Below, piece by piece: positions 8,440-17,747 of a stretch of 38,380 bases of DNA; the first letter of the stretch is position 1; each line of letters starts with the position of its first letter. The stretch is from positions 1-38,380 of the forward strand of contig JAAFJN010000021.1 of NCBI GenBank assembly GCA_013298845.1, in the 5' to 3' direction. A model generated the notes under the pieces. It did no database searches, was not told the DNA's origin, and saw only the letters and a list, made by a program, of their open reading frames with translations. A program made the position numbers and the translations under genes. Source of the DNA: Chitinophagales bacterium (GTDB lineage: Bacteria; Bacteroidota; Bacteroidia; Chitinophagales; Saprospiraceae).

Positions 8440-8472
8440 GATTTTTATATGATTTTTTAGAAATCCCCGTAC

Positions 8473-8663
8473 GGGCAGCCCTCGTGGCTGCCCATCAATA
8501 ATTTTACAAAATCCCCATATAGGCAGCCCTCGTGGCTGCCCATTAATAATTTTGGATAACGGCACATCCGGGGCAACCACGAATTGCGGGTAACGGCACA
8601 TCCGGGGCAACCACGAATTGCGGGTAACGGCACATCCGGGGCAACCACGAGGGTTGCCCCTAC
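8473..8663. repeat. REP-like palindrome cluster with a 34-bp tandem repeat
   Basis: Two palindromes at 8473-8493 and 8521-8541 have the form GGGCAGCC-ctcgt-GGCTGCCC. They are followed by a 34-bp unit repeated at 8557-8590, 8591-8624 and 8625-8658; the units contain GGGGCAACCACGAATTGC. The last unit ends in the intact palindrome GGGCAACC-acgag-GGTTGCCC followed by CTAC (8660-8663, GTAG on the minus strand). The architecture, GTAG at the foot of a hairpin, is that of REP sequences mobilised by RAYT transposases (established for other bacteria); no RAYT gene is present here. The TAG inside this GTAG is the kbl stop codon. Confidence 0.85.
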
Positions 8664-9856
8664 GGGATGACGTTTAATGATTTACCTACTTTGGTGAACG
8701 CTGCGACGGCTTTTTCCAAATGTTCCTGTTCGTGGGCGGCGGACAATTGCACGCGAATTCGCGCTTTCCCCTGCGGTACTACGGGATAAAAGAATCCAAT
8801 GACGTAAATACCTTCCGATAGTAGTTCTTTGGCAAATTGCTGCGCGAGTGGCGCATCGTACAACATAATGGGCACAATTGGGTGATCGCCGGGGATAATA
8901 TCAAAACCGGCGTCGGTCATGGCCTTGCGGAACCATTGGGTATTGTGCTCCAATTTATCGCGCAGCACCGTACTTGAACTCAACAAATCCATCACTTTAA
9001 TGCTGGCGCCCACGATGGAAGGTGCCAACGTGTTGGAAAACAGGTATGGGCGTGAGCGTTGGCGCAACATTTCAACTATTTCCTTCCGCGCCGAGGTGAA
9101 ACCGCCCAATGCACCACCCAGGGCTTTACCCAGGGTGCCGGTAATAATATCTACCCGGCCCATGACATTGCGGTACTCGTGGGTGCCGCGGCCGGTTTTA
9201 CCCAAAAAGCCCGAAGCATGGCATTCGTCAATACCCACCATTGCTTCGTATTGGTCCGCCAGATCACAAATTTTATCCAACTGCGCAATGGTGCCATCCA
9301 TCGAAAATGCGCCGTCGGTGAAAATCAAAATGCGCCGCACACCAGCCGCGCGTGCTTCTTTTAGGCAATCTTCCAACGAATTCATGTCGTTGTGCTTGTA
9401 CCGGAACCGTTTGGCTTTGCACAGGCGAATACCGTCAATAATGGAGGCGTGGTTGAGTTCGTCGCTGATGATGGCGTCTTGTTCACCCAGCAGGGGTTCA
9501 AACAAACCACCATTGGCGTCAAAAGCCGCCGCGTACAGGATGGTATCTTCGGTGCCGAGAAATTCGGCTATTTTGCGTTCCAGGGTTTTGTGCAAATCCT
9601 GCGTGCCGCAAATAAACCGCACCGATGACATGCCGTAGCCGTGTGAACGGATAGCGTCAATGGCGGCTTCGATCACATCGGGGTGGCTGGATAAACCGAG
9701 GTAGTTGTTGGCGCAAAAATTAAGGACCTGCTTTTGTACAGTGGTATCAATAATCGGGCCTTGCTGCGTGGTGATGATGCGCTCTTCTTTATACAATCCG
9801 GCGGTGCGGATGTCATCCAGTTCTTTCTGGAGTTCTTTTTGTACGTTTTGAAACAT
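8660..9856 (-). CDS. kbl: glycine C-acetyltransferase (2-amino-3-ketobutyrate CoA ligase)
   Basis: This 398-residue PLP enzyme of the alpha-oxoamine synthase family interconverts 2-amino-3-ketobutyrate plus CoA with glycine plus acetyl-CoA in threonine degradation. Seen motifs are FCANNYLGLS (48-57), NHAS (135-138), GIDECHASG (208-216) with PLP-contacting D210, and the Schiff-base lysine K244 in TLGKALGG. Length and C-terminus (GKSLNVIP) match Kbl rather than BioF or HemA. The ATG at 9856 is preferred over one 39 bp upstream because the latter overlaps a -7-like box (9886-9893). The stop codon TAG lies inside the GTAG foot of a REP-like repeat. Threonine dehydrogenase is not adjacent. Confidence 0.95.
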   Translation of the reverse strand: MFQNVQKELQKELDDIRTAGLYKEERIITTQQGPIIDTTVQKQVLNFCANNYLGLSSHPDVIEAAIDAIRSHGYGMSSVRFICGTQDLHKTLERKIAEFLGTEDTILYAAAFDANGGLFEPLLGEQDAIISDELNHASIIDGIRLCKAKRFRYKHNDMNSLEDCLKEARAAGVRRILIFTDGAFSMDGTIAQLDKICDLADQYEAMVGIDECHASGFLGKTGRGTHEYRNVMGRVDIITGTLGKALGGALGGFTSARKEIVEMLRQRSRPYLFSNTLAPSIVGASIKVMDLLSSSTVLRDKLEHNTQWFRKAMTDAGFDIIPGDHPIVPIMLYDAPLAQQFAKELLSEGIYVIGFFYPVVPQGKARIRVQLSAAHEQEHLEKAVAAFTKVGKSLNVIP

Positions 9857-9885
9857 AAATAATTTGTGATTGAAATGGTCGGGCA

Positions 9886-9893
9886 CAAATGTC
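9886..9893 (-). promoter_or_regulatory. candidate -7 box for kbl
   Basis: On the minus strand this reads GACATTTG, one mismatch from TAnnTTTG, 29 bp before the kbl ATG. It overlaps the more upstream ATG at 9895, arguing against that start. No clear -33 element. Confidence 0.4.
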
Positions 9894-9945
9894 ATTAAGT
9901 TTTTAAAAATAATGGTAAAAAAATGAGTAAAAAGCGGAAAAGGGG

Positions 9946-9953
9946 TAATTTTG
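9946..9953 (+). promoter_or_regulatory. -7 box TAATTTTG for gapA
   Basis: TAATTTTG is a full match to TAnnTTTG, 41 bp before the gapA ATG at 9995. It lies downstream of an in-frame ATG at 9923, so it supports the shorter GapA. The -33 region is not clear. Confidence 0.65.
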
Positions 9954-9994
9954 CGGCTCTATTTGAATTTTCTATTTTTAAAACATACAAACAC

Positions 9995-10987
9995 ATGGCA
10001 AAAAAACGTATAGCCATTAACGGATTTGGCCGCATCGGCCGTCTGACATTCCGCAACCTCGTTAAAAACAGCGATGTTGAAGTGGTAGCGATCAACGACC
10101 TTACAGACAATTTAACACTTGCGCATCTGCTCAAATACGACACGATGCACGGCAAATTTGAAGGTACTGTAAGCGCTGATGCTGATTCCATTACGGTAAA
10201 TGGCCACAAAATTGCTGGTCTTGCTGTTAGAAATCCTGCTGAACTTCCCTGGGCTGCTATGGGTGTTGATGTGGTGTTGGAGTGCACCGGTATTTTTCTG
10301 GACAAAGAAAAAGCGGGCCTTCACCTTCAGGCGGGCGCTAAACGCGTTATCCTTTCTGCGCCACCTAAAGCCGATGATGTTCCCACTTTTGTAATTGGTG
10401 CCAACCACCAGGACATTAAGGACACCGACCTTATCATTTCCAACGCATCTTGCACCACCAACTGCCTTGTTCCAATGATCATGACGTTGGACCGCGCATT
10501 TGGCGTGGAGCAGTTCTTTATGAACACCATTCACGCGTACACTGCCGACCAAAATTTGCAGGATGGTCCTCACAAAGACCTCCGTCGTGCACGTGCTGCG
10601 GCTCAAAATATTGTTCCCACCAGCACCGGTGCCGCAAAAGCAGTAGTTTTGGTAGCCCCGCACTTGAAAGGTAAAATTGCGGCGCACTCCATGCGCGTGC
10701 CCGTGGCTACCGGTTCCGTAACCGACGTTGTTGCTACCATCAAAAACGCCGCCACCGTGGAAGAAGTAAACGCTGCATTTAAAGCCGCTGCCGACAGCCA
10801 CTTGCAAGGTATTTTGGAGTACAACACCGACGAAATCGTTTCTGGCGACATCGTGCGCAATACCCACTCTTGTATTTACGATGCTCCGTTGACGCAAGTG
10901 AATGGCAACACCGTTCGTATCGTGGGTTGGTACGACAACGAGGCTGGCTACTCTGCTCGTTTGGCGCAGTTGGCTTCTATGATTTAA
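9995..10987 (+). CDS. gapA: type I glyceraldehyde-3-phosphate dehydrogenase
   Basis: A 330-residue glycolytic enzyme that converts glyceraldehyde-3-phosphate, NAD+ and phosphate to 1,3-bisphosphoglycerate. The NAD-binding motif INGFGRIGRL (8-17), D35 at the end of the second strand (typical of NAD preference), catalytic C153 in SNASCTTNC and H180 in HAYTADQ are all visible. The phosphate-binding segment PTSTGAAKAV and the C-terminal WYDNEAGYS are intact. The start at 9995 (MAKKRIAING) fits the family and the promoter; a longer frame begins 72 bp earlier. It precedes pgk by 93 bp with a hairpin in between, consistent with a gapA-pgk unit that may be partly attenuated. Confidence 0.97.
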   Translation: MAKKRIAINGFGRIGRLTFRNLVKNSDVEVVAINDLTDNLTLAHLLKYDTMHGKFEGTVSADADSITVNGHKIAGLAVRNPAELPWAAMGVDVVLECTGIFLDKEKAGLHLQAGAKRVILSAPPKADDVPTFVIGANHQDIKDTDLIISNASCTTNCLVPMIMTLDRAFGVEQFFMNTIHAYTADQNLQDGPHKDLRRARAAAQNIVPTSTGAAKAVVLVAPHLKGKIAAHSMRVPVATGSVTDVVATIKNAATVEEVNAAFKAAADSHLQGILEYNTDEIVSGDIVRNTHSCIYDAPLTQVNGNTVRIVGWYDNEAGYSARLAQLASMI

Positions 10988-11025
10988 TTGACAACAAGTA
11001 ACGCTACTCGTTCAATAATTTTTTG

Positions 11026-11060
11026 AGGCGCGGGTCTAATGTTGAGTTAGGCTCGCGTCT
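11026..11060 (+). terminator. hairpin between gapA and pgk (attenuator or weak terminator)
   Basis: A 14-bp stem (11026-11039 with 11047-11060, three G-T wobbles) closes a 7-nt loop. It is followed only by TTCCATTT, without a long U-tract, and the hairpin ends 20 bp before the pgk ATG. It could reduce read-through or form part of the pgk leader. Confidence 0.45.
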
Positions 11061-11080
11061 TTCCATTTAAAGTATCTACT

Positions 11081-12283
11081 ATGAATATTAACTTTAAAGA
11101 TCAAAAAGCATTGGTTCGCGTTGATTTTAACGTACCATTGGATAAACAGTACAATATCACGGATGATACCCGTATTCGCGAAGCATTGCCCACTATTCAG
11201 CACATTCTCGCGCAAGGTGGTTCCGCCATTTTGATGTCGCACCTTGGTCGTCCGCTCGAAAAACTCAACGCCGACGGCACGATCAATAAGGAGAAATTTA
11301 CGTTGAATCACCTGGTAAAACACCTGAAAAAGAAACTAAAAACCAAGGTGCATTTTGCGGATGATTGCATTGGTAAAAGCGCGGTGAAAAAAGCCGCCGC
11401 CCTCAAACCAGGCGAAGTATTGCTCTTGGAAAATACCCGTTTTTACGTGGAAGAAGAAAAAGGCGACGAGGCATTTGCCAAAAAATTGGCGGCCTTGGGA
11501 ACCGTTTATGTGAACGACGCGTTTGGTACTGCGCACCGTGCACACGCCAGTACAACCGTTGTGGCGCACTTTTTTGACAAAGACCACAAGTGTTTTGGTA
11601 TGCTTATGGATCGCGAAATCGCCAACGCAACCCGCGCCATGAAAAATCCGGCAAAACCTGTTACCTGCGTTACGGGTGGTTCGAAAGTGAGCGACAAAAT
11701 CATGTTGTTGGAAAAATTCCTCGATTACGCGGATAATATCCTTATCGGTGGTGCTATGGCATACACGTTCTTTTTGGCGAAAAAAGGTGCGGTGGGTAAT
11801 TCATTGGTGGAACCTGAAAAAATCAAAACTGCTTTGGAATTTTTGAAAAAAGCCAAAGCGGCCGGGGTTAAAGTGGTGCTGCCCAAAGACAGCGTTTGTG
11901 GTGATAAGTTCGCCGCCGATGCACAGGTGCAAATCACCAACAGCAACCAAATCCCAAACAACTGGATGGGATTGGACATTGGTCCGGCGGCAGCGCGTCA
12001 ATTTGCGGGCATTATTCGCAAAAGCCAAACCATTATCTGGAATGGCCCCATGGGCGTGTTCGAAATGCCTGCTTTTGCCGAGGGTACTAAAATTGTTGCC
12101 AAGGCTTGTGCAGCAGCCACTAAAAAAGGCGCTTTCACCATGGTGGGTGGCGGAGACTCCGTTGCCGCAGTAAACCAGTTGAAATTGGCCAAAAAAGTGA
12201 GTTTTGTATCCACTGGCGGTGGTGCAATGCTGGAGTTTTTAGAGGGTAAAGAATTGCCGGGTATTAAGGCTATTGCCGAATAA
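11081..12283 (+). CDS. pgk: phosphoglycerate kinase
   Basis: This 400-residue enzyme transfers phosphate from 1,3-bisphosphoglycerate to ADP. Visible conserved parts are VDFNVPLD (14-21), R31 in DTRIREALPTI, SHLGRP (53-58), LLLENTRFY (114-122), VNDAFGTAHRAHAS (144-157), GGSKVSDK (199-206), NGPMGVFE (321-328) and the nucleotide-binding GGGDS (356-360). Length is normal for bacteria. It follows gapA on the same strand, the common pairing of the two consecutive glycolytic steps. REP-like palindromes follow 29 bp after its stop and may act as the transcript's 3' hairpin. Confidence 0.97.
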   Translation: MNINFKDQKALVRVDFNVPLDKQYNITDDTRIREALPTIQHILAQGGSAILMSHLGRPLEKLNADGTINKEKFTLNHLVKHLKKKLKTKVHFADDCIGKSAVKKAAALKPGEVLLLENTRFYVEEEKGDEAFAKKLAALGTVYVNDAFGTAHRAHASTTVVAHFFDKDHKCFGMLMDREIANATRAMKNPAKPVTCVTGGSKVSDKIMLLEKFLDYADNILIGGAMAYTFFLAKKGAVGNSLVEPEKIKTALEFLKKAKAAGVKVVLPKDSVCGDKFAADAQVQITNSNQIPNNWMGLDIGPAAARQFAGIIRKSQTIIWNGPMGVFEMPAFAEGTKIVAKACAAATKKGAFTMVGGGDSVAAVNQLKLAKKVSFVSTGGGAMLEFLEGKELPGIKAIAE

Positions 12284-12311
12284 GGGCAATTGTGAACGAA
12301 TAACTCACGTT

Positions 12312-12411
12312 GGGGCAACCACGATGATTGTGGGCAACCACGAGGGTTGCCCCTACAATTATTTTATTATGGTGGGCAACCACGAGGGTTGCCCACAATT
12401 ATTATTTTATT
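12312..12411. repeat. REP-like palindromes in a roughly 40-bp tandem duplication before the DUF2167 gene
   Basis: A degenerate unit (12312-12330) is followed by two intact palindromes, GGGCAACC-acgag-GGTTGCCC, at 12332-12352 and 12374-12394. The first is followed by CTAC (GTAG on the minus strand). Both are followed by nearly the same A+T-rich tail (ACAATTAT...TTATTATG), so the block is a tandem duplication. The tail of the second copy runs into the ATG of the downstream gene at 12412; the matching ATG of the first copy is at 12369. Confidence 0.8.
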
Positions 12412-13332
12412 ATGAAAAAACTTTCCTTTTTGCTGCTTGCAGCCGTTGTTTTTTTACAATCTTTTCAAACTGTTCAGGCACAGGAACAAGAAATGACCGA
12501 GGCGCAAATGATCGCCCGCATGACTTTTGTGCTCGACTCCATCGAAAAAGCCTTTCAATGGCAAACCGGTAAAGTTGATCTTCCCGGCGGCATGGCTTCG
12601 ATTAATGTCCCTGCTAACCTGCGTTATCTCAACCCGGAACAAAGTTTATTTGTGCTAAATGACATATGGGGTAACCCTCCGGGTGTGACTACTGCGGGCA
12701 TGTTATTCCCCGTCAACATCAGCCCTTTGTCGGATAGTACCTGGGCTTTTAACCTCAATTTTGAGGAAATGGGCTACGTAAAAGACGGTGATGCCGACGA
12801 CGTTGACTACACGGAATTGTTGGATAACATGAAAAAAGAGGCGGTTGAAGCCAGTAAATTGCGTACCCAACAAGGCTACGAAGCCATTGATATCGTTGGC
12901 TGGGCCTCACCTCCGTATTACGATAAAGATAAAAAAGTGCTGCACTGGGCCAAAGAAATTAAATTCGGCACCGGTGAAGCCGGTAATACCCTGAATTACG
13001 ATATGCGCTTTTTGGGCCGCAAAGGGGTACTTTCGCTCAATGCCATTAGTGGTATTAACCAATTGGACTTGATTAAAGGGAATATTTCCGCCATAACAAA
13101 TGCGGTTTCTTTTAACGAGGGCCATCGCTACGAAGACTTCGACTCTAACGTTGATGAAGTCGCAGCCTGGACTTTGGGTGGTTTGGTTGCGGGTAAAGTT
13201 CTGGCGAAAGCGGGATTTTTCGCGGTTATTCTCAAATTTATTAAACCTATCCTTATTGGTGGTGCGGCTTTGGCGACCGCTACTTGGCGCTGGTTTACCA
13301 GTCGTCGGCAGAAGGACGAAGGCGCTGAATAA
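12412..13332 (+). CDS. DUF2167 membrane protein
   Basis: A 306-residue protein with a signal peptide (residues 1 to about 23, ending VQA-QE). A DUF2167 body follows, showing VDLPGGMASINVPANLRYL near residue 50, VLNDIWGNPP, the segment GWASPPYYDKDKKVLHWAKEI, and NYDMRFLGRKGVLSLNAIS. One or two hydrophobic segments lie near the C-terminus (about 250-285), followed by the basic tail SRRQKDEGAE. The family is widespread, membrane-anchored and of unknown function, so none is proposed. The open frame extends 28 codons upstream, but that part is REP-like repeat, so I use the ATG that opens the signal peptide. A strong terminator follows at 13362. Confidence 0.88.
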   Translation: MKKLSFLLLAAVVFLQSFQTVQAQEQEMTEAQMIARMTFVLDSIEKAFQWQTGKVDLPGGMASINVPANLRYLNPEQSLFVLNDIWGNPPGVTTAGMLFPVNISPLSDSTWAFNLNFEEMGYVKDGDADDVDYTELLDNMKKEAVEASKLRTQQGYEAIDIVGWASPPYYDKDKKVLHWAKEIKFGTGEAGNTLNYDMRFLGRKGVLSLNAISGINQLDLIKGNISAITNAVSFNEGHRYEDFDSNVDEVAAWTLGGLVAGKVLAKAGFFAVILKFIKPILIGGAALATATWRWFTSRRQKDEGAE

Positions 13333-13361
13333 TTGCCTGCGCTTTGCGTTGGGTGTACAAT

Positions 13362-13413
13362 AAAAGCCCGTTGTGATTTACTTTTTGGGGTAAATCGCAA
13401 CGGGCTTTTAATT
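13362..13413. terminator. intrinsic terminator after the DUF2167 gene
   Basis: AAAAGCCCGTTG.GATTTA (13362-13380) pairs with TAAATC.CAACGGGCTTTT (13391-13409) with one mismatch and a 10-nt loop, followed by AATTTTT. The flanking A and T runs make it usable in both directions. Confidence 0.85.
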
Positions 13414-13443
13414 TTTATGCGACGTGGATTTTTATTCGAAATC

Positions 13444-13602
13444 GTGGGCACCCACGAGGGGTGCCCCTACGGATGCCCGACGTGGATGCCCGACGTGGAT
13501 GCCCGACGTGGATGCCCGACGTGGTTTTTTATCCGAAATCGTGGGCACCCGTACGTTGTTTTTTTATCCGAAATCGTGGGCACCCACGAGGGGTGCCCCT
13601 AC
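13444..13602. repeat. REP-like palindrome cluster downstream of the S9 peptidase
   Basis: Two intact palindromes of the variant GGGCACCC-acgag-GGGTGCCC are each followed by CTAC: 13447-13470 and 13579-13602. A partial copy begins at 13543. The text ATCCGAAATCGTGGGCACCC precedes the partial copy and the second copy, with one mismatch before the first. The last CTAC (13599-13602) supplies the TAG stop of the S9 peptidase on the minus strand. Confidence 0.82.
13471..13522. repeat. 13-bp tandem repeat, four perfect copies
   Basis: The unit GGATGCCCGACGT occurs four times without interruption at 13471, 13484, 13497 and 13510, directly after a REP-like CTAC. Since 13 is not a multiple of three, all frames are read successively and no conserved peptide results. 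It is unlikely to be coding. Confidence 0.9.
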
Positions 13603-16508
13603 TCGGGGGCGTCTTTTTCGAGGGGCGGAATGCCGCGTTGCATCCAACGGGGTTCGGGGGCATCCATCAAATAATAATCAAAAAATTGCTCCATCCGGCG
13701 CTGAAAATCAATACGATTGGGCAATTTTACGGGCCAATGCGGTTCGTCGTTGTAATTGAGCAGCCAGGCCGGTTTGCCTAAACGTCGCAGACAGGTGAAA
13801 AACTCCAGTCCTTGTTCCCACGGTACTGCACCGTCTTTGTCGTTGTGCATCAACAATAACGGCGTTTGCACTTTGTCCAACGAAAACAGTGGGGAATTTT
13901 CCAAATAATGCATGGGTTTTTCCCACAGCGTTCCCCCAATTCGGCTCTGCTGTTTTTCGTATTGGAAATGGCGGCTCACCCCCGATTCCCAACGAATTCC
14001 TCCGTACGCCGAGGTCATGTTCACCACCGCAGCCCCGGCTTCGGCGCAGCGGAACAGGTTGGTTTTGGTCACGATGTAGGCCGCCTGGTAACCGCCCCAC
14101 GAGTGTCCCTGCAAGGCTACCCGGTCGGGATTGATACCACCCATCGCAACAACCGCATTTACGCCGCTGACAATGGCGTTATAGGCCGATTCGCCGGGGT
14201 ACCCAATCTGGTACGGGATATCGGGTAAAAAGACCACGTAACCACGACTGGCGTATTGAACGTAGTTAATTTGCGACCGTCCGTAAGCGGGTGGGCGGTG
14301 CTGGTACAAGCCATCCGATAGTTTTTCGTAAAAATTAACAATCATCGGGTAGCGCTTTTTGGGATCGAAATTAGCGGGTTTAATGAGCATACCGGCCAGC
14401 GTATCACCCGTTAAGGAGCGCCAATGCACCAATTCGATACTGGGCCACGCGTATTCCTTTTGTTGAGGATTAACGTCGCTGATTTGTACGTTTTTAGACG
14501 ATTCACCGTCTTTTTCGGGCAAAACGGCGTAACGCAAATTGGGAAATTCTTCAAAATTTTGCCGCGTATAAACTACTACGTTGGCCTTTTTGGCTTTTTG
14601 AACGTTACGGCCAAAACTGTAAGGACCCGTCATCCAAGGCGTTGTTTTTCCGGTGGGCAGGTGTAACCAATGGTACGAGTCCTGCTTGGTCTGGTGGTTA
14701 AAGCCGTGCACCAATACCGTTCCGTTTGGGTCAATGGTTTGCTCTTCGGGATTGAGGCGCATGTACCGGTACGTTGTTTGCACCGCCGCGCCATTGGTGA
14801 TGCGCCGCATGGACAATGGTTTGTCGAGGTCGCTCCACCAAATATCGTATTTGTCGTACAGCAAAACGGCTTTTTCACCGGTCAAAAATCCCGCAAAACC
14901 GAAGTTGCCCGGTGCATCAGGGGTGTCATCTTCTTCGTCGTAGAATTTATTTTTTTGATTGTTGCTCAATTTAACCGGTTCGGCTTTTTGCAACGAATGC
15001 GCCCACCAGGCGGTGTCTTTTTCCGACCAGTACAAAACATAATTGGCCCCCGGCGAAATGCTTTGATTGCCAAATAGTTGTTTTAATAATGGCTTTTTTG
15101 CCCCCGTCGTCAGGTCAAGTGCGTACAAGTCACGGGCGGCTTCTCCCAACCATTGCGATGCCTGCATATACGGTTCGTCGTTGGTAGCCAAGGCCATATT
15201 GGCGTTGCGGTCGCGGTGGTACAACACCCGCAATTCGGGCATATTCACGTCGGCCAGCGGCACCATTTTGTTTTTCTGATCGAGGTGGCACACCACCGGC
15301 CAGGCTTTTTTGGCATCTTCTTTCATGCGCTCTTTTAATACGGTATGGAGATACGGCGTTTCGGTAGCCCACACTTCTACTTTGGCAATTTCTTCGGGCA
15401 GTAGGGTGGTATCGGGCTGCACCGGCGGCGGCATAATGCCAAAGTAGAGTTTAGAGCCATCTTTGCTAAACGTCGGTTTCCCATGTTCGCTGATGAGCCA
15501 GTTTCCTTTTACCGTTGCCGTGGCGGGTTGAGTTGGCAACCAAGGCGCGTTGTTTTGGGCGATAATTTGCGCACTGTCTTTGGCGGAAAGTTGCCCCAAG
15601 GCCAGTTGCCACGGGCGGACAACGGCTTTTGTGGTATCGTTATCCAACAAAAAAGCGGCTTTGTCGCCGTTTTCGTGGAGTTGCAGTTGTTTGAATTTGG
15701 CTTTGCCGCGCCATAGGGCCTTGTTGCTTTTTTGGGTCAATTGTCGCCCAAAAACGCCTGAAACAACCTCTTTTTTGTGCTGCCACTGCCAGGCGTCACC
15801 TATTCCGGTGCTGGCGTACAGCACGGAGGGTGCCCGTTCAGCGATGGCGTATTCTTTGACAAACGGAATGGTATCGGTTGTTTTGGTGGAAAGTTGGCGA
15901 ATGAGCAATTGCGACCCATTATCGGCGCTTTCTTTTTTGGTTTTGGCGCGTTTTTCGGCCAGTTTTTCGTTGGCCTTGACAATGGAATCGGGTAGGGGAG
16001 CCGCCGTGGTGTCTTTGGGTGCGGCTTTTTCTTTGGTTTTGGCGGCTGGTTCGAGTTGAATCACCAACCAGTCGGACCAAAATTCGGGCAGAGAATAGGT
16101 CTTTACACGGGCAATTTTTTCCAATGCTCCGGTGCTGATTTGATAGATGCCGAGGGTGTCTTTGGGCAAATCATCGGCTTTGGTTTTTTTTCGTTTTAGC
16201 GCCCGAACGGAGTCCAATGGCGGTTTGATGGTAAAGGTTAACCAGCGGCTATCTTCCGAAATTTGTGGGTTTTCGGCTCTTTGAAAAGTAACTGTGGTGT
16301 TGTTACCAGCATTCCAAAGGTGTACCGTTGCGTCACCTTCCGAAACGGAGCGGATTTGGTAAGCAACCCATTGTCCATCGGGGCTAATGGTTTGTTTTTC
16401 AATACTTTTCCAACGCGGAACGTCGGTTTGCTGAATTGCTTTTTGCTGGGCCAGCAGGCTAATGGTTAGGGGAAAAAGGGCAAAGTATAACGCGAGTAGT
16501 TTTTTCAT
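13599..16508 (-). CDS. S9-family (prolyl oligopeptidase-like) serine peptidase, exported
   Basis: A 969-residue protein with a signal peptide (MKKLLALYFALFPLTISLLAQ). It has a long beta-propeller-like N-terminal region with repeated ISPDG/WLTF/LYF blades (about 25-680). The C-terminal alpha/beta-hydrolase domain carries S803 in GHSWGGYQA, D892 in NDKDGAVPW and H924 in DEPHWPVK as the catalytic triad. It should cleave short peptides in the periplasm or at the cell surface; specificity is unknown. The ATG at 16508 is chosen because it opens the signal peptide; the frame extends 52 codons further into repeat DNA. A -7 box ends 4 bp before this ATG. The stop TAG lies in a REP-like GTAG. Confidence 0.92.
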   Translation of the reverse strand: MKKLLALYFALFPLTISLLAQQKAIQQTDVPRWKSIEKQTISPDGQWVAYQIRSVSEGDATVHLWNAGNNTTVTFQRAENPQISEDSRWLTFTIKPPLDSVRALKRKKTKADDLPKDTLGIYQISTGALEKIARVKTYSLPEFWSDWLVIQLEPAAKTKEKAAPKDTTAAPLPDSIVKANEKLAEKRAKTKKESADNGSQLLIRQLSTKTTDTIPFVKEYAIAERAPSVLYASTGIGDAWQWQHKKEVVSGVFGRQLTQKSNKALWRGKAKFKQLQLHENGDKAAFLLDNDTTKAVVRPWQLALGQLSAKDSAQIIAQNNAPWLPTQPATATVKGNWLISEHGKPTFSKDGSKLYFGIMPPPVQPDTTLLPEEIAKVEVWATETPYLHTVLKERMKEDAKKAWPVVCHLDQKNKMVPLADVNMPELRVLYHRDRNANMALATNDEPYMQASQWLGEAARDLYALDLTTGAKKPLLKQLFGNQSISPGANYVLYWSEKDTAWWAHSLQKAEPVKLSNNQKNKFYDEEDDTPDAPGNFGFAGFLTGEKAVLLYDKYDIWWSDLDKPLSMRRITNGAAVQTTYRYMRLNPEEQTIDPNGTVLVHGFNHQTKQDSYHWLHLPTGKTTPWMTGPYSFGRNVQKAKKANVVVYTRQNFEEFPNLRYAVLPEKDGESSKNVQISDVNPQQKEYAWPSIELVHWRSLTGDTLAGMLIKPANFDPKKRYPMIVNFYEKLSDGLYQHRPPAYGRSQINYVQYASRGYVVFLPDIPYQIGYPGESAYNAIVSGVNAVVAMGGINPDRVALQGHSWGGYQAAYIVTKTNLFRCAEAGAAVVNMTSAYGGIRWESGVSRHFQYEKQQSRIGGTLWEKPMHYLENSPLFSLDKVQTPLLLMHNDKDGAVPWEQGLEFFTCLRRLGKPAWLLNYNDEPHWPVKLPNRIDFQRRMEQFFDYYLMDAPEPRWMQRGIPPLEKDAPE

Positions 16509-16512
16509 CCGG

Positions 16513-16520
16513 CAAATATA
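16513..16520 (-). promoter_or_regulatory. -7 box TATATTTG immediately before the S9 peptidase ATG
   Basis: TATATTTG on the minus strand is a full TAnnTTTG match and is separated from the ATG at 16508 by only CCGG. The predicted transcription start falls on or next to the ATG, suggesting a leaderless or nearly leaderless mRNA. No clear -33 element. Confidence 0.55.
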
Positions 16521-16570
16521 ATATAGGCGGTGTTTTTGCCGGTGAATGGTGGTATTTTTTTGTTGTGGTG

Positions 16571-16676
16571 GGCGTAGGGGTAGGCCGTGGTAGGGGTAGG
16601 CCTTGTGCCTACCCAACCACGGCCCACCCCAATCACGGGGGCCACCACGAACGGGCAACCCCAATCACGAACGGGC
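16571..16676. repeat. degenerate REP-like units and a larger hairpin
   Basis: This is the first half of the gene-free stretch 16509-16865. GTAGGGGTAGG is repeated, and a long inverted repeat joins GGCCGTGG (16583-16590) and GGGTAGGC (16594-16601) to GCCTACCC (16607-16614) and CCACGGCC (16617-16624). Truncated units with CCAATCACG follow. Short open frames across it are repeat-derived and not believable genes. Confidence 0.7.
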
Positions 16677-16869
16677 AACCACGAGGGTTGCCTCAATCAC
16701 GAACATGGCCCCGTAGGACAACCACGAGGGTTGCCTCAATCACGAACATGGCCCCGTAGGATAACCACGAGGGTTGCCTCAATCACGAACATGGCCCCGT
16801 AGGATAACCACGAGGGTTGCCTCAATCACGAACATGGCCCCGTAGGACAACCACGAGGGTTGCCCCTAC
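16677..16869. repeat. 43-bp REP-derived tandem repeat (four copies plus terminal REP)
   Basis: Copies begin at 16677, 16720, 16763 and 16806 with only C/T differences at the last base. Each unit starts AACCACGAGGGTTGCC and ends CCCCGTAGGA plus C or T. A final partial copy (16849-16869) ends in the intact form GGTTGCCCCTAC. The last CTAC (16866-16869) overlaps the fabD stop codon. The exact 43-bp period suggests recent amplification by slippage or unequal exchange. No gene is supported here. Confidence 0.9.
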
Positions 16870-17747
16870 AGGGCGTCGGTGACGGCCTCTTTATTGATTT
16901 TGCGGATCATTCCCCGCAGTACGGCACCGGAACCACCTACCTCGATAAACGTGGTAATGCCGTTGGCGATCATATTTTCAATCGTTTGGGTCCAGCGAAC
17001 GGGAGATGTTAATTGCGCAATCAAATTAGCGCGAATGTCCTCCGGATCGTTTACTGGCTGTGCGTGTACATTTTGATAAATCGGGCAAATCGGCACTGCA
17101 AAATGCGTGCTACGAATGGCTTCAGCCAATTCATCCTGGGCTGGTTGCATCAGTGGAGAGTGAAATGCACCACCTACCGATAAGGCCACCACCCGTTTGG
17201 CGCCGCGCTCCTGTAACAAAGGCGTTACCAGTTCAATTCCTTTGCGGCTACCGGAAATCACTAATTGTCCCGGTGTGTTGTAATTGGCGGCCACCACCAC
17301 TTCGTCGGTGATGCTGGCGCAGATTTCTTCCACCGTAGCATCATCCATACCGAGTACGGCGGCCATGGTGCTGTCCACCAGTTCGCAGGCTTTTTGCATG
17401 GCCATTGCGCGTTTGCTCACTAGTATAAGGCCATCTTTGAAGGATAAGGCACCCGTGGCCACCAAGGCTGTTAATTCACCGAGAGAGTGACCGGCAGCGG
17501 CATCGGGGGTGAACGCATCACCGGCCATACGTGCGCGCACGATACTTTCCAAAAACACGGCGGGCTGGGTAACTTTTGTTTGCGTCAGGTCTTCTTTGGT
17601 ACCTTCAAACATAATATCCGTGATGCGCCAGCCTAAAATATCATTGGCCTCTTCAAAAAGTTCTTTGGCGAGGGAATTGGACTCGTATTGTTCTTTGCCC
17701 ATCCCTTCAAATTGGGAACCTTGTCCCGGAAAAACGTATCCTTTCAT
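16866..17747 (-). CDS. fabD: malonyl-CoA:ACP transacylase
   Basis: A 293-residue enzyme that moves malonyl from CoA to acyl carrier protein for fatty-acid elongation. Motifs are FPGQGSQ (6-12) with Q9, TQPA (60-63), nucleophile S88 in GHSLGE, R113 in SKRAMAMQ, the NYNTPGQ segment (155-161) and H196 in GGAFHSPLM. It closes with EVGGSGAVLRGM. Length is close to the usual 290-310. It lies 13 bp downstream of the SUMF1-like gene on the same strand, so it is probably cotranscribed; no other fab gene is nearby. Its stop is TAG within the GTAG of a REP-like repeat. Confidence 0.96.
   Translation of the reverse strand: MKGYVFPGQGSQFEGMGKEQYESNSLAKELFEEANDILGWRITDIMFEGTKEDLTQTKVTQPAVFLESIVRARMAGDAFTPDAAAGHSLGELTALVATGALSFKDGLILVSKRAMAMQKACELVDSTMAAVLGMDDATVEEICASITDEVVVAANYNTPGQLVISGSRKGIELVTPLLQERGAKRVVALSVGGAFHSPLMQPAQDELAEAIRSTHFAVPICPIYQNVHAQPVNDPEDIRANLIAQLTSPVRWTQTIENMIANGITTFIEVGGSGAVLRGMIRKINKEAVTDAL

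What the first reader, a model, noticed from the sequence alone, without database searches (positions are those of the whole stretch)
8660..16869. Stop codons of three genes are supplied by the GTAG foot of REP-like repeats
kbl (8660-8662), the S9 peptidase (13599-13601) and fabD (16866-16868) all end in TAG, and in each case TAG is part of GTAG directly followed by GGGCA, the start of a REP-like palindrome. The codon before the stop ends in G in all three (CCG, GAG, CTG), and the proteins look full length. REP elements mobilised by RAYT transposases carry a GTAG tetranucleotide at the hairpin foot in other bacteria (established). This suggests insertion at or into stop codons, or selection for copies that leave coding intact and add a 3' hairpin.
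Basis: partly seen in the sequence, partly recalled or inferred. Interest (0 to 1): 0.75.

Follow-up and report, generated by a model that had tools for sequence, protein, structure and literature searches.

The report
REP hairpins docked on stop codons
In this bacterium, small repeated hairpins of a known transposase-associated kind sit directly behind the stop codons of about twenty genes, and in more than half of those that could be compared with relatives the gene already ended there, so the hairpin used the stop as a landing mark and left the gene intact.

Summary
It extends over the genome: of 109 copies examined in 45 stretches, 19 start exactly at the base after a gene's stop (14 TAG, 5 TAA, 0 TGA), and 15 more lie 6-24 nt behind one, foot towards the gene. 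Stem covariation is strong, and a RAYT-like gene of the same genome is followed by two copies with GTAG feet. This is a GTAG-type REP family.

'Supplied by the repeat' is not borne out in most testable cases: in 9 of 15 stop-abutting genes with relatives, a relative without the repeat ends at the same codon; fabD, L081, L084 and L096 have such relatives with the same stop. Four of 15 are shorter than all relatives read, so supply remains possible there, S9 included. Stop sites are used 4-6 times more than the supply of GTAG/GTAA sites predicts, and more than in sister genomes sampled: insertion bias or retention acts too. That GTAG REP ends often provide TAG stops is in print (PMC3733652); the order of events, TAA use and orientation bias are added here.

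The parts
8660..8662 (-). TAG stop of kbl; with G8663 it forms the GTAG foot
8639..8659 (-). REP palindrome GGGCAACC-CTCGT-GGTTGCCC, directly after the kbl stop
   Evidence: predicted RNA hairpin, z -3.05
8548..8650 (.). three 34-nt tandem units behind and overlapping the kbl-proximal REP
   Evidence: D5
8473..8493 (+). REP copy with GTAC foot (8469-8472), not at a stop
8521..8541 (+). degenerate REP copy (ATAT foot)
12332..12352 (-). REP copy with GTAG foot (12353-12356), not at a stop
12374..12394 (-). REP copy without the foot
13446..13466 (-). REP copy with GTAG foot (13467-13470), 132 nt behind the S9 stop
13599..13601 (-). TAG stop of the S9 peptidase; with G13602 it forms the GTAG foot
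13578..13598 (-). REP palindrome GGGCACCC-CTCGT-GGGTGCCC, directly after the S9 stop
16866..16868 (-). TAG stop of fabD; with G16869 it forms the GTAG foot
16845..16865 (-). REP palindrome GGGCAACC-CTCGT-GGTTGTCC, directly after the fabD stop; followed by TAC, so GTAG can pair with CTAC (double foot)
   Evidence: z -3.71
16634..16891 (.). 43-nt tandem array with further REP copies (e.g. 16673-16693, 16716-16736) behind fabD
   Evidence: (D1)
16594..16614 (+). REP of the AGGC stem type with GTAG foot (16590-16593), inside the 5' part of the longest S9 ORF (13599..16664) but outside the trimmed gene call (13599..16508)

Best explanation
The repeats are a REP family of the GTAG type whose compact unit in this genome is a GTAN foot plus a 21-nt palindrome (8-bp stem, loop usually CTYGT). 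They were most likely spread by a RAYT-like HuH transposase acting on single-stranded hairpins (inferred; a RAYT-like gene followed by two such copies is shown). At most of the genes in question the copy was joined immediately 3' of a pre-existing stop whose bases, usually NNG-TAG or NNG-TAA, served as or coincided with the foot, so the protein end is unchanged (native stop position shown for 9 of 15 testable genes; that the foot itself came from the target is inferred, best supported at L096). GTAR at a gene end is a site where such an insertion costs nothing. Copies then grew into tandem arrays away from the gene (inferred). Their excess in the first 30 nt behind stops, foot towards the gene, over both site supply and sister genomes points to insertion preference for the coding strand at gene 3' ends or selective retention of a 3' hairpin; the data do not choose between these.
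For: Exact docking: 19 of 109 copies at distance 0 and, of the 3'-end-nearest copies, 15 at 6-24 nt. Stops at distance 0: TAG 14, TAA 5, TGA 0; G precedes 15 of 19; all 266 called genes with a stop: TAA 165, TAG 64, TGA 37. Supply test: 10 of 27 GTAG copies against 33/392, p 4e-5; 5 of 13 GTAA copies against 42/650, p 9e-4. Native ends: 9 of 15 genes end at the same codon as at least one relative without the repeat in the 30 nt shown; L096 has a CTAG foot and relative G006 reads TTC TAG with no repeat; L081's two relatives read AAG TAA and AAA TAA; 4 of 4 relatives of L084 have TAG; 4 of 29 fabD relatives read NNG TAG. No called gene has its 3' end inside a copy; 6 copies overlap a called gene, three inside L094's gene, one inside L079's, two at gene starts, although insertions carrying their own stop should be out of frame two times in three. 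In 47 non-stop GTAN copies each position upstream of the foot has at most 0.13 bits and each downstream at most 0.26. Covariation: 48 of 48 unfiltered exact matches pair at both free positions; 46 double-change cells against 13.4 in shuffles. RAYT-like gene at G000:C89, 205-aa open frame: TAA, 5 nt, GTAG and the palindrome, second copy about 170 nt on. Orientation at gene 3' ends: 44 foot-facing to 16, 34 to 3 within 30 nt; at 5' ends 17 to 18.
Against: No empty-site allele of the same locus in a near strain was available; the best fabD relatives share 80% identity, so the G of the foot cannot be dated. Four of 15 proteins are shorter than every relative read (L070 by 15 residues, S9 by 3-9, L104 by 3, L067+3915 by 1) and may owe their stop to the repeat; L079 is 2-3 longer than 4 of 4. 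CCG precedes the foot in 3 of 19 stop copies and 11 of 47 others, hinting at a longer element-borne foot in some. In sisters G018 and G020 about ten bases upstream of GTAG are conserved, so there GTAG travels with the element. Published biochemistry treats GTAG as the guide motif of the REP, with cleavage at CT (PMC8266576, passages). The RAYT-like gene scores 47.9 bits, below the 80-bit cut-off, and its copies are seen on its 3' side only, near a contig end. Gene calls come from a simple script; tandem copies are not independent. The pairing filter dropped 12 of 105 matches with up to 2 mismatches in the stretches, one of them 2 nt behind a stop without a foot (L064), so 'none at 1-5 nt' holds only for the 109 kept.
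Confidence: 0.6

Rival explanations
1. The repeat supplies the stop: the element carries GTAG, inserts near a gene's 3' end, and in-frame cases end the protein at the foot.
For: GTAG is 63 of 73 and 20 of 20 feet in sisters G018 and G020, with conserved bases upstream. L070 is 15 and S9 3-9 residues shorter than relatives. CCG before the foot recurs. PMC3733652 says the termini 'provide' the stop codon (section 15).
Against: Same end codon as a relative without the repeat in 9 of 15 genes; same stop codon without repeat for fabD, L081, L084, L096. No called gene has its 3' end inside a copy.
Confidence: 0.17
2. Pure selection for a 3' hairpin (terminator or RNA protector) without a target motif: any hairpin just behind a stop is kept.
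For: Excess within 30 nt of stops beyond site supply. Predicted RNA folds better than shuffles at the three genes, z -3.05, -2.23, -3.71 (at S9 the minimum-energy fold uses other pairs). No excess in sister G018, whose listed copies are nearly uniform.
Against: A symmetric hairpin should not need the foot towards the gene, yet 34 of 37 within 30 nt face it. TGA is used 0 of 19 times. GTA is kept at 50 of the 90 other copies. No T-run directly follows the palindromes of the three genes (read).
Confidence: 0.15
3. Chance or ORF-calling artefact: GTAG contains a stop codon, so some open frames end there.
For: TAG in the foot ends any frame that reaches it in phase; the gene caller is home-made.
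Against: 15 of the 19 proteins have relatives over their last 70 residues and the three of the window match Pfam families. 10 of 27 GTAG copies against 8% supply, p 4e-5; GTAA 5 of 13, p 9e-4.
Confidence: 0.03

Closest known systems
GTAG REP super-family, Di Nocera et al. 2013 (PMC3733652; sections 5 and 15 and search passages read; author name recalled)
   Same: Short palindrome, GTAG at one end, close to gene 3' ends, termini that often coincide with TAG stops, tandem clusters.
   Different: The survey lists GTAG repeats in Proteobacteria, Cyanobacteria, Chloroflexi and PVC and CGTC repeats in Bacteroidetes among others; here the host is Bacteroidota, feet are GTAG, GTAC and GTAA, and TAA stops are used. 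The sections read do not say which came first, stop or repeat.
TnpA_REP subclass 2.4 REPtrons, Quentin et al. 2018 (PMC6006769; passages read; author name recalled)
   Same: Bacteroidetes among the hosts, GT[AG]G feet, double-foot copies, NHFH motif, REPs beside the gene and, in sisters G029 and G034, inside it in frame.
   Different: G000 protein has FQ for WQ and YIIQNP for YIxNNP; no tree was made.
RAYT genes with REPs close to or immediately behind their own stop codon, Nunvar et al. 2010 (PMC2817692; passages read; author name recalled)
   Same: REPs directly behind a stop codon.
   Different: There the rayt gene itself; here unrelated host genes.
REPtron biochemistry of E. coli, S. maltophilia and Marinomonas, Corneloup et al. 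2021 (PMC8266576; outline, passages, section 29 read)
   Same: GTAG 5' of a hairpin recognised by a HuH transposase; GTAC in place of GTAG shifts cleavage sites in one system.
   Different: There GTAG is a guide carried by the REP; here at stop codons it appears to belong to the target.
IS200/IS605 insertion behind a fixed short target (recalled)
   Same: Insertion immediately 3' of a short target that becomes the left foot would explain docking on NNG-TAG.
   Different: No gene-carrying mobile element and no transposition shown here.

Membership tests
GTAG-type REP | Short palindrome with conserved stem pairing | tested here: met
   48 of 48 unfiltered exact matches pair at both free positions; 97.8% of cells paired on 40 of 43 distinct copies
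GTAG-type REP | GTAG tetranucleotide at the 5' foot | tested here: inconclusive
   G000: GTAG 27, GTAC 22, GTAA 13, GTAT 3 of 109 copies; sisters GTAG 63 of 73, 20 of 20, 18 of 26 in G018, G020, G024, but 1 of 14 in G029
GTAG-type REP | Dispersed, mostly extragenic, many copies | tested here: met
   108 matches with up to 2 mismatches in 6.37 Mb, reversed control 3; 49 loci in the stretches read; 6 of 109 copies overlap a called gene
GTAG-type REP | RAYT-like gene with copies of the family beside it | tested here: met
   G000:C89 gene followed by two copies on its 3' side; activity untested
RAYT/TnpA_REP (NF047646) | Score above the curated cut-off | tested here: not met
   C89 gene 47.9 bits against 80, E 4.7e-12; the G000 gene at C12 scores 85.8 but has no such copies beside it
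TnpA_REP subclass 2.4 | NH[IFV]H, WQ, YIxNNP motifs | tested here: inconclusive
   NHFH met; FQ and YIIQNP in G000; WQ and YIVQNP in G029
TnpA_REP subclass 2.4 | REPs inserted in frame in the tnpA_REP gene | tested here: inconclusive
   seen in relatives G029 and G034, not in the G000 gene
Intrinsic terminator | Hairpin directly followed by a T-run | tested here: not met
   none behind the palindromes of the three genes (read); other copies not tested
REP mobilisation | Single-strand cleavage and strand transfer by the RAYT | not testable with these tools
   needs purified protein

The most novel reading that the evidence does not exclude
REP copies in this lineage insert as bare palindromes immediately 3' of a GTAR already present in the genome and recruit it as the foot, so that the stop codon itself completes a new, cleavable REP; stop codons would be a coding-neutral target class, giving REPs an IS200/IS605-like target rule.
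Probability: 0.35. Interest if true: 0.7.

Novelty: new member of a known kind. Interest (0 to 1): 0.45.

Why it matters
How REP sequences spread is described as poorly understood (abstract of PMC8266576). Stop codons mark the target side of each insertion to the base, so families like this let the question 'does GTAG travel with the REP or belong to the target?' be read from sequence. If the target supplies it, REPs have a target rule and a reason why they collect harmlessly at gene ends.

Tried and rejected
A stricter reading, that the repeat always brings GTAG, was dropped after the relative comparison. The five IS200-like genes (about 155 aa), the RAYT-like genes at C12 and C78 and the hit at C52 were set aside as the cognate enzyme: palindromes of this family were not seen in the fetched flanks. 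The G000 hits at C45 and C47 were not inspected. Rfam found nothing in the window at gathering scores. A PDB search with the RAYT-like protein gave no match at E 1. Of the papers found I read passages or sections of four (PMC3733652, PMC2817692, PMC8266576, PMC6006769); only PMC3733652 was seen to make the stop-codon point for host genes; the rest are listings. No tree, structure prediction or fold search was made.

Rows left out: of 108 core matches 100 were listed, and stretches were fetched around those. In the stretches, copies were kept at up to 4 mismatches with at least 7 paired positions; 12 of 105 matches with up to 2 mismatches fell to that filter, and 16 of the 109 kept have 3-4 mismatches, three of them overlapping 13-nt tandem units in the window. 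Sister copies from G018, G020, G024 and G029 are those; of six further genomes only the 30 loci were read, 31 copies, 2 at distance 0, one of which (G001) rests on a 63-codon open frame at an end of the sequence. Of 39 other genus genomes with a fabD match 29 loci were fetched. Absence of a repeat in relatives is judged on the 30 to 60 nt shown.

Full report
What is there. The three gene ends are as described. Directly behind each stop lies a palindrome of 21 nt, 8-bp stem and 5-nt loop CTCGT, on the coding strand of the gene. The genome has 6.37 Mb in 89 contigs; the window is contig 14. Titles of the best kbl relatives point to Saprospiraceae, Bacteroidota. The core pattern GGGCNNCCCTYGTGGNNGCCC has 108 matches with up to 2 mismatches, its reversed control 3.

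It is a structured family. Of 48 unfiltered exact matches in the stretches read, the two free pairs are complementary in all: 94 Watson-Crick and 2 G-U of 96 cells, in seven combinations. On 40 of 43 distinct copies with a GTAN foot, 97.8% of cells pair, with 46 double-change cells against 13.4 in shuffles. The foot is GTAG 27, GTAC 22, GTAA 13, GTAT 3 of 109 copies; the remaining 44, many inside tandem arrays, do not have GTA there. In 47 non-stop copies chosen for GTA, positions outside foot and palindrome carry at most 0.13 bits upstream and 0.26 downstream.

Position. With a simple gene call (299 genes, 45 stretches), 19 of 109 copies start at the base after a stop, none at 1-5 (1 and 2 are impossible with a GTAN foot), then 6 and upwards. 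One copy dropped by the pairing filter lies 2 nt behind a stop without a foot (L064). Reduced to 49 loci and the copy nearest each gene end: at 60 gene 3' ends 44 nearest copies face the gene with the foot and 16 with the back; within 30 nt 34 to 3; at 35 gene 5' ends 17 to 18. Without the distance-0 cases the numbers within 30 nt are 15 to 3, although GTAN sites on the two strands are 68 to 87, p 0.001. Supply of sites: GTAG 33 at stops and 359 intergenic, GTAA 42 and 608; observed at stops 10 of 27 and 5 of 13, p 4e-5 and 9e-4. The 33 and 42 include the occupied sites, which makes the test conservative. The other four of the 19 have ATAG or CTAG feet.

Comparison with sisters. By one open-frame rule, 20 of 109 copies abut a stop in G000 and 4 of 133 in G018, G020, G024 and G029, Fisher p 1.2e-4; 2 of 31 in six more genomes. 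G018 alone has 3 of 63 GTAG copies at stops, in line with the supply measured in G000 (p 0.49). Tandem copies are not independent, so p values are rough. Feet are mostly GTAG in G018, G020 and G024, not in G029, and 16 of 31 in the six further genomes; G018 and G020 have conserved bases upstream.

Did the repeat bring the stop? Of 19 stop-abutting genes, 15 have relatives among the loci read; L067-4760, L076-4295 and L097 have none and L092 only a glycine-rich chance match. In 9 of 15 at least one relative without the repeat has the same length: L066, L067-4102, L072, L073 (weak, 51% identity), L081, L084 (1 of 4), L096, kbl, fabD. fabD ends in AL in 19 and GL in 7 of 29 relatives; 6 of 29 use TAG, 4 of these NNG TAG. 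kbl has the same length as 46 of 80 relatives. L096 is the clearest: its foot is CTAG, and relative G006 has the same TTC TAG with no repeat. Against: L070 is 15 residues shorter than 3 of 3 relatives, S9 3-9 shorter than 4 of 4, L104 3 shorter than 2 of 2, L067+3915 one shorter than 3 of 3; L079 is 2-3 longer than 4 of 4; L074 goes both ways. So the window's own three split: fabD docked, kbl most likely docked with a changed last residue, S9 open. One kbl relative (L111) has a hairpin with another loop behind its own stop.

Copies and coding. Six of 109 copies overlap a called gene: three inside one long gene of L094, one inside a gene of L079, two at gene starts; no called gene has its 3' end inside a copy.

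The enzyme. Y1_Tnp finds 5 IS200-like and 2 weaker genes. The RAYT model NF047646 adds, among others, G000:C89:233-661, 205-aa open frame, 47.9 bits against a cut-off of 80. Its stop TAA is followed by ACAAC, GTAG and GGGCAGGCCTTGTGCCTGCCC, and a second such copy lies about 170 nt on, near the contig end. Its relative in G029 (35% identity) and a similar gene in G034 lie among copies with GTCG, GTTG or GTAG feet and carry copies inside the gene in frame, as reported for subclass 2.4 (PMC6006769, passages).

How it most likely works. A single-stranded palindrome is joined behind GTAR; stop codons preceded by G are coding-neutral places for this; arrays then grow by tandem duplication. These steps are inferred; shown are the exact positions, the native stops and the RAYT-like gene. 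The excess near stops with a fixed orientation is inferred to be insertion preference or retention. PMC8266576 (passages) treats GTAG as a guide carried by the REP; both can be true if joining happens at matching tetranucleotides.

Known or new. [quoted passage not shown] I therefore file this as a new member of a known kind, with a testable twist.

Noticed in passing
L261 (G029:C80) and L267 (G034:C57): RAYT-like genes that contain REP palindromes inside their coding sequence, in frame.
   Followed up: partly
L063/L258 (G000:C78): A second RAYT-like gene flanked by a different REP type, GTAC-TGCCGAAC-CCC-GTTCGGCA, several in tandem.
   Followed up: partly
L062/L250 (G000:C12): The best-scoring RAYT of the genome is flanked by long repeats (GGCGGCACAGCCGCC...) instead of short REPs of this family.
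   Followed up: no
G005, G024, G030, G032 (listings): Many copies in these sisters come as pairs roughly 50-80 nt apart with the GTAG feet facing each other.
   Followed up: no
L094 707-4927: Three REP copies lie inside one long called gene of about 1400 codons.
   Followed up: no
window 13471-13522: Four tandem 13-nt units GGATGCCCGACGT between REP copies behind the S9 gene.
   Followed up: no
L064 4011 (+): A poorly paired copy 2 nt behind a stop codon, without a foot; left out by the pairing filter.
   Followed up: no
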